From Prochlorococcus marinus str. GP2 (GTDB lineage Bacteria; Cyanobacteriota; Cyanobacteriia; PCC-6307; Cyanobiaceae): 64,000 bases of DNA. Both the position numbers and the translations under genes were made by a program. Below, piece by piece: positions 60,614 to 63,365 of this stretch. Location: contig NZ_JNAH01000002.1 of NCBI RefSeq assembly GCF_000759885.1, positions 62,001 through 126,000 on the forward strand. Direction: 5' to 3'. The notes under the pieces were generated by a model that was given only the letters and a program-made list of their open reading frames with translations, was not told the DNA's origin and ran no database searches. How positions within the stretch are numbered: position 1 is the first letter of the stretch; every line of letters begins with the position of its first letter.

Positions 60614-60814
60614 TTATCTTAGTAGAGATAGATACCATTGCCCAATTACTATGATCAATATTGTAAGAACAAAAGGGAAAGCAGGATATCTTGTCTTAAA
60701 ATTAGCTGGTGGCCAAGGAGACCATGATATTAATCTTCCCTGAGGTTCATTTGAAATAACTTTTTTCTTCGATTTTTTGGATATTAAATTATCAGTGGCG
60801 AATCCTTTATTCAT
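60614..60814 (-). CDS. Small single-pass membrane protein, hypothetical
   Basis: 66 residues. A polar N-terminus with Lys runs, then SWSPWPPANFKTRYPAFPF and one C-terminal hydrophobic helix (VLTILIIVIGQWYLSLL). No hli/chlorophyll-binding signature (ExxNGRxAM) is present. ATG start at 60814. It is the last conventional gene before the integrated element. Confidence 0.55.
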   Translation of the reverse strand: MNKGFATDNLISKKSKKKVISNEPQGRLISWSPWPPANFKTRYPAFPFVLTILIIVIGQWYLSLLR

Positions 60815-60897: not shown

Positions 60898-60914
60898 AAC
60901 GGAGGGGGTGGGAT
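60898..60914. repeat. Left attachment repeat: copy of the tRNA-Ser 3' end
   Basis: AACGGAGGGGGTGGGAT here is identical to 63144-63160, where 15 of the 17 bases are the 3' end of the intact tRNA-Ser gene. Sequence identity stops on both sides (G versus A before it, C versus T after it). This is the signature of an element integrated into a tRNA 3' end. It lies in the 414-bp gene-free gap 60815-61228, which otherwise holds the short repeats listed next and the promoter of the endonuclease. Confidence 0.88.
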
Positions 60915-60937
60915 CATTTTTAAGTTGAAATGACAGG

Positions 60938-60957
60938 CTATGACATCCTATGATAGG
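60938..60957 (+). repeat. Tandem decamers near the left end
   Basis: CTATGACATC then CTATGATAGG (the latter includes the perfect palindrome CCTATGATAGG, 60947-60957). It resembles the decamer pair at the right end. Candidate recombinase arm-type or core-flank sites. Confidence 0.4.
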
Positions 60958-60982
60958 TCAAATATGAAATCGATTATTAAAT

Positions 60983-61002
60983 CCACCAACAAATCCACTA
61001 AC
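60983..61002 (+). repeat. CCAC(C/T)AAC repeats, left
   Basis: CCACCAAC (60983-60990) and CCACTAAC (60995-61002), 12 bp apart, in the same orientation and spacing as the right-end pair. Confidence 0.5.
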
Positions 61003-61228
61003 AATATTTAGAGCTATAAGTGAGATAATCTATTAATATTCTCAAATTAATTACCACTTTGCATTCTTCAAACAAAGTAAGGTATTGGAAAGCAAATATA
61101 CTATTTAAATTATTAATTCTTTCTTCGTCTCATACAACACCATTAGGTAATTTTTTTTATTTAAAAAATACACAATAAAACTTCTTAATTTCAAAAACAG
61201 CTATATATATATTATTGAGAGAAATTAA

Positions 61229-61981
61229 GTGGGGTCTTTTTCAGATAGTTTTCAATCTCTTCTACCGATTATTGAAGATCGCATTAAAAATTTACCAGTT
61301 AAGGGTTTCATTGCTAGTTCTAAATTTGAAGATATTATTTTCCCATTAGGCTCAGATACTAAAGTACTTGGAACAGTTTTTGAATTACTCTCAAGAAAAG
61401 AGGTTTATGAGGTAGCTAATAAGGAAAAACTTTTGATAAAGGAAGCATCAAGGCAGAACTTCTATCCTGATTTCACTATTATGCGTTCTGAGACGGACCT
61501 TGAAAAAATAGCTCTTGATATAAAAACAACATACATTACTAAAAGGAATCAAAAATTTAAATTTACTCTAGGAAGCTACACATCTTTTCTCAGGAATCCG
61601 ACAAAAAACATAGAATATAATTACAAAGAATATAAAGAACATTGGGTTCTTGGTTTTGTCTATCAGAGAGACACTAGTAAAATAAGTGCTTCTCATATTT
61701 GGCATCCTTATGAAAAAAGGGAAAGAATAAAGCCAGCCTATTCAAATGTTGATCTATTTTTTAGACAAAAGTGGGAGATAGCATCAGACTCAGCAGGCTC
61801 CGGCAACACTGCAAATATTGGAAGTATTTATGGAGAAATAAGTGACTTTAAAAATAAATTGCCTTTATTTAAATCGGAGAAAGAATTCGAAGCTTACTGG
61901 AGGAGCTACAAAAGAACTGCACTAGAAAGAGAAACAAATTATCGCAACATAAAAGAATTTAGGCAGAAATATGATTATTAA
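61229..61981 (+). CDS. EcoRV-family type II restriction endonuclease (predicted GATATC)
   Basis: 250 residues, close to EcoRV (about 245). From memory of the EcoRV sequence, the alignable blocks are FPLGSDTKVLGTVFELLSR, FYPDFT, ALDIKTTY, KFTLGSYTSFLRN and AGSGNTANIGSI. Active-site residues all have counterparts at a constant +7 offset: E52 (EcoRV E45), D81 (D74), D97 (D90) and K99 (K92). The recognition (R) loop G190-N196 reads GSGNTAN versus GSGNTTN in EcoRV, so GATATC cleavage is the natural prediction. The start is GTG 61229 with GAGAG at 61218-61222 upstream. It converges with its methyltransferase, overlapping it by 23 bp. Confidence 0.92.
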   Translation: MGSFSDSFQSLLPIIEDRIKNLPVKGFIASSKFEDIIFPLGSDTKVLGTVFELLSRKEVYEVANKEKLLIKEASRQNFYPDFTIMRSETDLEKIALDIKTTYITKRNQKFKFTLGSYTSFLRNPTKNIEYNYKEYKEHWVLGFVYQRDTSKISASHIWHPYEKRERIKPAYSNVDLFFRQKWEIASDSAGSGNTANIGSIYGEISDFKNKLPLFKSEKEFEAYWRSYKRTALERETNYRNIKEFRQKYDY

Positions 61982-62873
61982 ATTCTATATCTACTAAAGA
62001 ATTAAGATCATTTTTTAATAAATTTTGTTTTACATAATCAGGATGTATCACTAGAGCTTCAATCATTTTATTTCTGTTTTGTTCTGAACCCCCGAGATGA
62101 TAAAAATGAGAAAAGTATCTAAATGATGCAAATTTTTCAAAATTTTGTAAATATAGATTTTTCCTATATCTATTCTCAAACCACATTGACAGAGCATATC
62201 CTCCTTTTAATTTTTCAATAGCAGAGATCATCTTATGTGCATCTTTTTCATCCCAGGATGAATAATAATCTGTATGCCTTCCAACGTAAGGTGGGTCTAA
62301 ATATGTAAAAGAATTAGAGTTTGTATTTATTAAGGTTTCTTCCCAACTCTGGCATACAAAGTCCCATTCGGATAAAAGGATTCGCTCTCGAACTGCAACA
62401 AATTGATTATAAATTTTAGTAATTAAAGCTTTTCTAAATCGGTCATTTTTTTTGCAAAAAGGGACATTAAATTCACCTTTCTTATTGAAACGAATCAAAC
62501 CATTAAAACAGCACCTATTTAAAAAGACAAAATCCTTTGCATTTTTATCTTGATTAAATCTTTTTCTAATTTGATAATAGTGGGATTCTCCTTTTTGAGC
62601 CAATTCATTACCCTCTATCTTTAAATGATCAGCAATTTCTTCAGGCGTTAATTTATTATTTTGAATTGATTTATATAAATTGATTATATGTGGATTACTG
62701 TCAGATAATAACGCTTTTTTGGGCGCAAGATTAAAAGCTACTGAGCCTGATCCTAAAAAAGGTTCTATCCAGGTAATATTATTATTGATTTGGATATTAT
62801 CTCTAATAAAATCAATCAATTTTGTTTTAATACCTTGTATTTTTAATGGAGGTACAATTATATTTTTCATCAA
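61959..62873 (-). CDS. M.EcoRV-like Dam-family N6-adenine methyltransferase
   Basis: 304 residues; modifies the host's sites to block the partner nuclease. It follows M.EcoRV through most of its length: VPPLKIQGIKTKL (7-19), the SAM motif EPFLGSGSVAFN (37-48), FLNRCCFNGLIRFNKKGEFN (117-136, FNVPFCKK just after), and the catalytic DPPY at 193-196 (YLDPPYVGRHTDYY). It is an alpha-class D12 enzyme. The last ~30 residues are an extension. The ATG at 62873 is 272 nt from the tRNA. Convergent and overlapping with the endonuclease gene, unlike the divergent order I recall for the E. coli EcoRV genes. Confidence 0.92.
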   Translation of the reverse strand: MMKNIIVPPLKIQGIKTKLIDFIRDNIQINNNITWIEPFLGSGSVAFNLAPKKALLSDSNPHIINLYKSIQNNKLTPEEIADHLKIEGNELAQKGESHYYQIRKRFNQDKNAKDFVFLNRCCFNGLIRFNKKGEFNVPFCKKNDRFRKALITKIYNQFVAVRERILLSEWDFVCQSWEETLINTNSNSFTYLDPPYVGRHTDYYSSWDEKDAHKMISAIEKLKGGYALSMWFENRYRKNLYLQNFEKFASFRYFSHFYHLGGSEQNRNKMIEALVIHPDYVKQNLLKNDLNSLVDIEFNNHISA

Positions 62874-62958
62874 AAAGTTTTACTTTCTTAATTTTAACCT
62901 TTTTGAAAATAAAGCTTTAATTTATTTCCTAAATAAAATAAAAATAATAAATTTTAAT

Positions 62959-62999
62959 CCACCAACATTATTTAAAAAACCACCAACAAATCCACCAAC
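62959..62999 (+). repeat. CCACCAAC repeats, right
   Basis: Copies at 62959-62966, 62980-62987 and 62992-62999; the last two are 12 bp apart, as on the left. They lie in the 272-bp gene-free stretch 62874-63145, upstream of the methyltransferase, so they could instead be its operator. Confidence 0.5.
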
Positions 63000-63104
63000 A
63001 AAAATTTGAGGATGTATGAAAACTGGTGATGATTTATGAAGTAGCCAAGATTGTTGATTTTTGCATATTTGGTTTTATGTCTACTATTACAATAATTTTG
63101 AAAG

Positions 63105-63130
63105 CTTATGAAGACTTATGACAACATAAG
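63105..63130 (+). repeat. Tandem decamers and hairpin at the right end
   Basis: CTTATGAAGA (63105-63114) and CTTATGACAA (63115-63124), followed by CATAAG. CTTATG-ACAA-CATAAG (63115-63130) is a perfect 6-bp inverted repeat. Just downstream of the tRNA 3' end on its strand, it could also act as a weak terminator. Confidence 0.4.
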
Positions 63131-63143
63131 ACTGCTTTCTAAA

Positions 63144-63160
63144 AACGGAGGGGGTGGGAT
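63144..63160. repeat. Right attachment repeat within the tRNA-Ser gene
   Basis: The 17-bp repeat identical to 60898-60914. Bases 63146-63160 are the tRNA 3' end (discriminator, acceptor strand and part of the T arm). Confidence 0.85.
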
Positions 63161-63232
63161 TCGAACCCACGGTGCCCTTGCAGACACGCTAGTTTTCAAG
63201 ACTAGAGCCTTAAACCACTCGACCACCCCTCC
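63146..63232 (-). tRNA. tRNA-Ser (UGA)
   Basis: 87-nt tRNA on the minus strand. The acceptor stem pairs GGAGGGG with CCCCTCC, discriminator G. The anticodon stem-loop is CTAGT-CTTGAAA-ACTAG, giving anticodon UGA. A long variable arm (GTGTCTGCAAGGGCAC region), as serine tRNAs have, is followed by the T arm GTGGGTTCGAATCCCAC. CCA is not encoded. The tRNA is intact, so the integration preserved function. Confidence 0.96.
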
Positions 63233-63365
63233 AAATGGGTTATTCAGTTTTAAACACCTAAGTAGTATAGCAAAGGGATTCACGACGAGAATAAAAAGAA
63301 GCTCTCTATGTAAAATATATTTTTTTTGTACTATTATTAAGGGCTATCATCAATCTTTTCGTGAC

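What the first reader, a model, noticed from the sequence alone, without database searches (positions are those of the whole stretch)
61229..62873. Complete EcoRV-type restriction-modification pair in a picocyanobacterium
The endonuclease keeps every catalytic position of EcoRV (E45, D74, D90, K92 equivalents at E52, D81, D97, K99) and six of seven recognition-loop residues (GSGNTAN versus GSGNTTN). The adjacent Dam-class methyltransferase follows M.EcoRV almost block by block. Restriction systems are rare in streamlined Prochlorococcus genomes, so a full system with an enterobacterial-type specificity is unexpected and points to long-range transfer.
Basis: partly seen in the sequence, partly recalled or inferred. 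Interest (0 to 1): 0.9.

Follow-up and report, generated by a model that had tools for sequence, protein, structure and literature searches.

The report
Restriction-enzyme pair riding a tiny island
A Prochlorococcus-type marine cyanobacterium carries an intact EcoRV-like DNA-cutting enzyme with its protective partner, and the two genes are the whole cargo of a small, probably mobile DNA island inserted at a tRNA gene, one of a family of such islands in the genus.

Summary
Window 61229-61981 (+) encodes an EcoRV homologue (45% identity, E45/D74/D90/K92 kept); 61959-62873 (-) its adenine methyltransferase (44% to M.EcoRV). The genes converge, overlap by 23 bp, and no C regulator was found.

The "enterobacterial transfer" reading is not supported: the family is widespread, and the window enzyme falls outside the clade holding EcoRV, weakly beside nucleases of marine viral contigs.

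The main result lies outside the quoted coordinates. The pair is the sole cargo of a 2.25-kb element (60898-63160) at tRNA-Ser(TGA), flanked by a 17-nt copy of the tRNA end that occurs exactly twice in the genome. Five relatives show an empty site. CCACCAACA arm repeats inside the cores recur at tRNA-Ser in other genomes of the genus, at repeated spacings: 71-72 nt in 22 of 35 clusters. I delimited ten cargo-bearing and six cargo-less elements, one with another convergent R-M pair. No integrase was found in them.

Best reading: a GATATC restriction system on a non-autonomous tRNA-targeted cassette. Activity, mobility and helper recombinase are inferred.

The parts
60898..60914 (.). left attachment core AACGGAGGGGGTGGGAT, copy of the tRNA-Ser(TGA) 3' end
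   Evidence: perfect 17-nt direct repeat of 63144-63160 (D9); exact match only at these two places in the 1.62-Mb genome, one further hit with 2 mismatches on contig C7
60979..61013 (+). left arm: CCACCAACA / CCACTAACA, 72 nt after the 12-nt core ACGGAGGGGGTG
   Evidence: (D1, D2)
61229..61981 (+). R gene: EcoRV-family type II restriction endonuclease, 250 aa, GTG start
61959..62873 (-). M gene: Dam/D12-class adenine DNA methyltransferase, M.EcoRV family; likely ATG start at 62870
62953..63010 (+). right arm: three CCACCAACA copies (62959-63000), 145 nt before the right core
63144..63160 (.). right attachment core = last bases of tRNA-Ser(TGA) plus one flanking base
63145..63233 (-). tRNA-Ser(TGA), intact; integration target
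   Evidence: ARAGORN; Rfam RF00005 57.3 bits at 63146-63232
60614..60814 (-). left flanking chromosomal gene (66 aa), 75-89 nt from the tRNA in five empty sites

Best explanation
A complete type II R-M system of the EcoRV family is the only cargo of a 2.25-kb integrative element at the 3' end of tRNA-Ser(TGA). M most likely methylates adenine in GATATC and R cuts unmethylated GATATC, so the pair restricts incoming phage DNA and, because the host genome has 430 GATATC sites, would punish its own loss. The element belongs to a family of small tRNA-Ser elements: a 12-17-nt core copied from the tRNA 3' end, CCACCAACA arm repeats at recurring distances inside the cores, and differing cargo between the arms. 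It encodes no integrase, so a tyrosine recombinase supplied in trans most likely integrates and excises it by binding arms and core, as lambda-type integrases do. Shown: homology, catalytic residues, intact ORFs, insertion with a duplicated core, empty sites in relatives, arm/core geometry in other genomes, no integrase in the window element. Inferred: enzymatic activity and specificity, mobility in trans, the helper, and the benefit to the host.
For: R and M homology and catalytic residues. The 17-nt core occurs exactly twice, and the 12-mer AATCCACCAACA exactly three times, in the whole genome, all at the element ends; reversed-pattern controls 0. Empty site: flanking gene to tRNA is 75-89 nt in 5 of the 23 loci (of 30 looked at) where both could be measured in the standard orientation, against 2334 nt here; joined window flanks align with those five. 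Family: a CCACCAACA pair (up to 2 mismatches) in 30 of 200 genus genomes, own included; exact in 12 of 68 genus genomes but 1 of 332 other genomes of the family (my count of its rows). Of the 30 arm loci, 24 have tRNA-Ser(CGA), 2 tRNA-Ser(TGA), 4 no tRNA in the stretch. Geometry: left spacing 71-72 nt in 22 of 35 clusters with any core upstream; right spacing 111-114 nt in 21 and 145-156 nt in 4 of 45 with any core downstream. With windows set after seeing these (69-75 and 105-160 nt), 24 of 52 and 28 of 52 clusters comply; maxima in 2000 random placements were 2 and 4. Ten cargo elements (1.7-6.1 kb) and six cargo-less ones (215-260 bp) were delimited. A second convergent R-M pair has the same architecture.
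Against: No activity, methylation or mobility data. GATATC avoidance, a possible footprint of R, is weak: forward/reversed-pattern ratio 1.13 against mean 1.274, sd 0.076 in 36 relatives, lowest of 37 but z -1.87, and the own value has a sampling error of 0.08. No helper recombinase identified. Two pattern scans of IMG/VR gave no element with these arms, so there is no sign of packaging. Many arm loci do not give a complete element: 10 cargo and 6 cargo-less elements from 33 loci, and L081 shows no core at all. Only 13 of the 37 ORFs of the ten elements were scanned singly against Pfam; for the rest the absence of an integrase rests on the PF00589 search of the genomes and on the starts of their translations. 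No promoter excess near R or M (15 found, 11.8 +/- 4.2 in shuffles).
Confidence: 0.78

Rival explanations
1. The pair is an R-M system left by an old insertion next to a tRNA; the repeats are a scar and the element is no longer mobile (can hold together with the main reading of the enzymes).
For: No integrase in the element and no PF00589 gene near the arms of its kin; G111 keeps only the right arm, so such elements decay.
Against: Left core identical over 17 of 17 nt and unique to this spot; both arms present at family spacings; relatives have clean empty sites.
Confidence: 0.3
2. It is a cargo-reduced tycheposon: same biology as the published Prochlorococcus tRNA-targeting elements, with the recombinase lost.
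For: Genus, tRNA target, tRNA-end repeat, accessory cargo; larger members of the arm family carry a DnaB-like helicase and a weak sigma-like match, reminiscent of satellites.
Against: No recombinase in the element; below the 4-200 kb given for tycheposons (PMC10872708, passages); the own genome's element with its own 429-aa recombinase sits at tRNA-Ala and has no CCACCAACA in the 14-kb stretch. The primary paper could not be read.
Confidence: 0.35
3. Direct transfer from an enterobacterium.
For: Conserved EcoRV residues and loop.
Against: R tree places the window outside the clade of EcoRV/Erwinia, Acinetobacter and Latescibacterota (95/90); M 44% to M.EcoRV but 47-49% to Acinetobacter, Geobacillus and Latilactobacillus; pLG13 has C and divergent order, here convergent without C.
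Confidence: 0.03
4. The pair is inactive or has drifted to another specificity.
For: Long branches of both proteins (0.86 and 1.37); weak avoidance of GATATC.
Against: All four catalytic and most loop residues kept; both ORFs intact.
Confidence: 0.15

Closest known systems
EcoRV R-M system, E. coli plasmid pLG13 (NC_005019)
   Same: R 45% and M 44% identical; same catalytic residues, and recognition loop apart from one residue
   Different: pLG13 has M and C-R divergent with an HTH (C) gene; here R and M converge, overlap 23 bp, have no C gene found, and sit on a tRNA-integrated element
Acinetobacter sp. ANC 7454 plasmid EcoRV-type system (NZ_CP156812)
   Same: convergent R and M; 47% and 48% identity
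   Different: has an HTH gene before R and lies on a plasmid
Stand-alone EcoRV-like nuclease on viral contigs (L241-L253)
   Same: nearest branch to the window R (SH-aLRT 86)
   Different: 197 aa, no M found in the fetched flanks; phage-like gene context in L243, the one read
Tycheposons of Prochlorococcus (Hackl et al. 2023, recalled; seen only through passages of citing papers)
   Same: tRNA target, tRNA-end repeats, accessory cargo in Prochlorococcus
   Different: no recombinase, 2.25 kb, CCACCAACA arms at recurring distances
Novel picocyanobacterial integrase islands at tRNA-Phe/tRNA-Cys (PMC10187409, passages)
   Same: tRNA-linked variable islands that can hold R-M genes
   Different: those carry their own integrase and use other tRNAs

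Membership tests
EcoRV-family restriction endonuclease (PF09233) | full-length match to the family profile | tested here: met
   3.2e-45, residues 20-240 over profile 7-229 of 244
EcoRV-family restriction endonuclease (PF09233) | catalytic E45, D74, D90, K92 | tested here: met
   E52, D81, D97, K99
EcoRV-family restriction endonuclease (PF09233) | recognition loop G182-S-G-N-T186 and N188, Q69 | tested here: met
   all kept; T187 is Ala and Q68 is Arg, both variable columns
EcoRV-family restriction endonuclease (PF09233) | blunt cleavage of GATATC | not testable with these tools
   needs enzyme assay
Dam/D12 adenine methyltransferase, M.EcoRV group | D12 domain with DPPY motif and family profile | tested here: met
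   PF02086 1.7e-40, TIGR00571 2e-52, DPPY at 192-195 invariant in 8 of 8, PADLOC MTase_II 4.6e-110
EcoRV R-M system as in pLG13 | C regulator gene and divergent R/M order | tested here: not met
   convergent; tblastn with four C proteins found none here
Tycheposon | integration at a tRNA gene with tRNA-end repeat | tested here: met
Tycheposon | element-encoded tyrosine recombinase | tested here: not met
   only R and M as sizeable genes in the element; the genome's two PF00589 genes are on other contigs
Tycheposon | 4-200 kb length (as stated in PMC10872708) | tested here: not met
   2.25 kb
CCACCAACA-armed tRNA-Ser element family (defined here) | tRNA 3'-end core, left arm 71-72 nt inside it, right arm 111-114 or 145-156 nt before the next core | tested here: met
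   72 and 145 nt in the window; the window helped to set the rule

The most novel reading that the evidence does not exclude
Prochlorococcus has a cassette system in which non-autonomous units, as small as 215 bp and defined only by a tRNA-Ser 3'-end core and CCACCAACA arms at recurring spacing, pick up cargo (R-M systems, TPR proteins, helicases and others), stack in tandem at tRNA-Ser and are moved by a recombinase encoded elsewhere, possibly the 386-399-aa tyrosine recombinase seen in 23 of 29 arm-bearing genomes (my count by length). The EcoRV-type pair is one such defence cassette.
Probability: 0.3. Interest if true: 0.85.

Novelty: new variant of a known kind. Interest (0 to 1): 0.62.

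Why it matters
It suggests how a genus in which many genomes lack restriction systems (PMC8262939 passages) can acquire one: as a two-gene cassette that has the DNA signals for site-specific integration but no integrase. The signals are short and recur at set distances, so excision, the helper recombinase and cassette exchange between strains can be tested directly. It bears on the open question of how genomic islands in this abundant ocean phototroph are assembled and how phage defence moves among cells.

Tried and rejected
Enterobacterial donor: rejected by trees and identities. Novel gene order: rejected; convergent without a detected C is the commonest of the arrangements counted, 25 of 88 loci, window included (C sought by tblastn with four C proteins only, so diverged ones may be missed). 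Strong GATATC avoidance in the host: not found. P-SSP7 has 8 sites against 14.9 expected, one phage only. CCACCAACA pairs in IMG/VR: 5 contigs, all five hits inside long ORFs, judged chance; a longer pattern for the TGA-type right arm gave 0. Integrase near the arms: of 29 genomes, 27 have PF00589 matches, on other contigs than the arms except in G210, a single-contig genome where the only one is about 655 kb away; G159 and G018 have none. Integrase matches about 1 kb from tRNA-Ser(TGA) in G138, G013 and G032 lie on the 5' side of the tRNA, opposite to this element. Promoter and terminator scans: no excess. Rfam: only the tRNA. Plasmid blastn: only partial matches, all within M. Papers: listings for tycheposon (8 papers), Prochlorococcus with R-M and EcoRV (2), Prochlorococcus islands, tRNA and R-M (14), Prochlorococcus recombinases (18) and non-autonomous elements (5) showed no title on these arms; of 5,059 papers with CCACCAACA or Prochlorococcus, none of the 10 listed holds CCACCAACA. 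I read only passages of five papers. Hackl et al. 2023 was not in the tycheposon listing and was not read. The search for EcoRV contact residues gave no paper.

Full report
OBSERVATION. The window ends in a region where 61229-61981 (+) and 61959-62873 (-) are open reading frames of 250 and 304 codons. The first matches solved EcoRV chains at 9.2e-63 over residues 20-246 and Pfam PF09233 at 3.2e-45. The second matches DpnM/Dam-type structures (5.1e-20), PF02086 (1.7e-40) and a PADLOC type II methyltransferase profile (4.6e-110). In an alignment of eight systems R is 45% identical to EcoRV and 47% to an Acinetobacter plasmid enzyme (31-41% to the other five); M is 44% identical to M.EcoRV, 48% to Acinetobacter, 47% to Geobacillus, 49% to Latilactobacillus, 46% to Rhodothermus, 43% to Antarctobacter and 42% to G093. 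Over 87 homologues E45, K92, Q69, S183, T186 and N188 are invariant, D74 (84 of 87) and D90 (81 of 87) nearly so; the window has all of them. The one loop change (T187 to Ala) is common, 24 of 87.

HOST. PF09233 occurs in 1 of 266 held genomes of the genus, this one.

GENE ORDER AND REGULATION. pLG13 has M and C-R divergent. Here R and M converge and overlap by 23 bp, and tblastn with four C proteins found none in the 6-kb stretch around the pair (small ORFs listed). Among 88 loci compared, convergent without a detected C is the commonest order (25, window included), then M-R tandem 21, R-M tandem 16, R only (contig end or no M found) 12, convergent with C 8, divergent with C 4, divergent without C 2. 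So the arrangement is ordinary for the family, and timing of R after M must rest on something other than a C protein of the tested kinds (inference).

ORIGIN. In a tree of 87 R proteins (one of 88 left out as a fragment) the window falls in a 22-row clade (99/98), beside a Halieaceae contig (93/86, below the starred level), outside the clade of Latescibacterota, Acinetobacter and EcoRV (95/90), and away from the cyanobacterial homologue G093; its branch is long, 0.86, so its place is unsure, and the nearest rows by path are Latescibacterota. IMG/VR gave 32 loci, of which I used the first 16 listed: in 13 of them a 197-aa EcoRV-like protein, nearly identical to the Halieaceae one, forms a group to which the window is sister (SH-aLRT 86, short search); no M was found in the fetched flanks of those 13, and L243, the one read, has a phage-like context. 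The M tree leaves the window unplaced. A marine origin is plausible, an enterobacterial one is not supported.

THE ELEMENT. tRNA-Ser(TGA) lies at 63145-63233 (-) (Rfam). Its last bases are repeated at 60898-60914: AACGGAGGGGGTGGGAT, 17 of 17. In the whole genome this 17-mer occurs exactly at these two places; the only other hit within two mismatches is on contig C7. Inside both cores are CCACCAACA repeats; the 12-mer AATCCACCAACA occurs three times in the genome, all here, while the 9-mer alone also occurs at least once elsewhere (L101 1643). Reversed-pattern controls were zero. Of 30 loci looked at, 23 (window included) allowed the distance from the left flanking gene (60614-60814) to the tRNA to be measured in the standard orientation: five (G138, G186, G140, G170, G123) have 75-89 nt, the window 2334 nt. 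The joined window flanks align with these five empty sites. The loci were chosen from good matches, so 5 of 23 is not an occupancy estimate. G111 keeps a right arm and junction like the window's but no cargo and no left core.

THE FAMILY. With up to two mismatches the double repeat occurs in 30 of 200 genus genomes, several with pairs 1.4-6 kb apart. Exact matches occur in 12 of 68 genus genomes but 1 of 332 genomes of other genera of the family (my count of its rows). Of the 30 arm loci, 24 contain tRNA-Ser(CGA), two tRNA-Ser(TGA) and four no tRNA; L081 shows no core and is probably a chance hit. Core copies (up to 1 mismatch) in these 340 kb: 65 in the arm orientation, 1 in the other. The distance from core to arm is 71-72 nt in 22 of the 35 clusters with any core upstream; from arm to next core it is 111-114 nt in 21 and 145-156 nt in 4 of the 45 with any core downstream; the arms at either end of a cargo are each expected to miss one of the two. 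With windows chosen after seeing this (69-75 and 105-160 nt), over 33 loci 24 of 52 and 28 of 52 arm clusters comply; the maxima in 2000 random placements were 2 and 4. By these rules ten elements with cargo (1.7-6.1 kb) and six without (215-260 bp) were delimited. This is the layout expected of a tyrosine-recombinase attachment site: core with flanking arm sites (inference from lambda-type systems, recalled).

CARGO. G123 (L077) has, between such arms, a C5 methyltransferase (PF00145, 5e-67) convergent with an IceA-family protein (PF05315, 1.1e-6; PADLOC REase_II 8.9e-26; kinship of IceA with NlaIII is recalled), and next to it an Mrr/helicase restriction-like protein. Others carry TPR and MORN proteins, a 2OG-Fe(II) oxygenase, a DnaB-like helicase, and weaker matches below Pfam's cut-off to a methyltransferase, a membrane (VTT) domain and sigma region 4 (PHROG sigma factor 6.5e-6). 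No recombinase was seen among the 13 of 37 ORFs scanned. PF00589 genes in 27 of 29 genomes lie on other contigs than the arms, or about 655 kb away in the single-contig G210, where the 389-aa gene is the only one. The own genome has two such genes: the 389-aa one, and a 429-aa one beside tRNA-Ala without these arms. The helper is therefore unknown; the 389-aa protein is one candidate, on no more evidence than its presence.

FUNCTION. The genome has 430 GATATC sites against 380 for the reversed pattern; the ratio 1.13 is the lowest of 37 genus genomes but only 1.87 sd below the mean of the other 36. If R cuts GATATC, the host genome needs M, which favours retention of the pair once acquired (inference). 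The element itself has no GATATC, which in 2.3 kb is not informative.

KNOWN WORK. Passages of PMC8262939 say that many Prochlorococcus genomes lack R-M and typically carry 0 to 1. Passages of PMC10187409 describe another picocyanobacterial integrase near tRNA-Phe or tRNA-Cys with variable islands that include putative R-M genes. Passages of PMC10872708 describe tycheposons. The primary tycheposon paper (Hackl et al. 2023) was not read; whether it lists these arms is open. So the enzymes are new members of a known family, and the integrase-less armed element is, as far as searched, a new variant of tRNA-targeted integrative elements.

Noticed in passing
L241-L253 (IMG/VR), L156: Thirteen viral contigs carry a stand-alone 197-aa EcoRV-like nuclease with no methyltransferase found in the fetched flanks; the Halieaceae MED611 contig L156 is nearly identical and may be a phage contig.
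   Followed up: partly
G075 (same genus label as G093): Only 36 GATATC against 384 reversed-pattern sites in a 3.0-Mb genome, strong avoidance; its congener G093 has an EcoRV-type R-M (L002) but G075 has no PF09233 match.
   Followed up: no
L077 7849-11157 (G123): Beside the second R-M cassette, a further core and arm and a 1102-aa Mrr_cat/helicase restriction-like protein: defence genes stacked at tRNA-Ser(CGA).
   Followed up: partly
L074, L079, L088, L098, L238: Cargo-less units of 215-260 bp with core, arms and core at the family spacing (six in five loci), like MITEs of this element family.
   Followed up: partly
L101 2646-3815; rows of 386-399 aa: A 389-aa tyrosine recombinase, beside a gene that looks like cobO (recalled, not tested) in the own genome; rows of similar length (386-399 aa) in 23 of 29 genus genomes searched.
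   Followed up: no
L102 7072-8570 (G000 contig C8): Own genome has a 429-aa tyrosine recombinase next to tRNA-Ala(GGC) in what looks like a satellite-like element, without CCACCAACA in the 14-kb stretch.
   Followed up: no
L104-L109, L124: tRNA-Ser(TGA) also shows another class of insertions: tRNA-end repeats of 43-85 nt, several ending at the anticodon loop, 0.8-2.1 kb away, and in some loci copies of the 5' half on the other side.
   Followed up: partly
L236 (G503): The only genome of another genus (1 of 332) with the exact arm pair; core, arm at 72 nt and tRNA-Ser(CGA) are present.
   Followed up: partly
MT835745.1 7185-8006: A phage record from human fecal samples encodes a relative of M at 48.9% identity over 90% of the query.
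   Followed up: no
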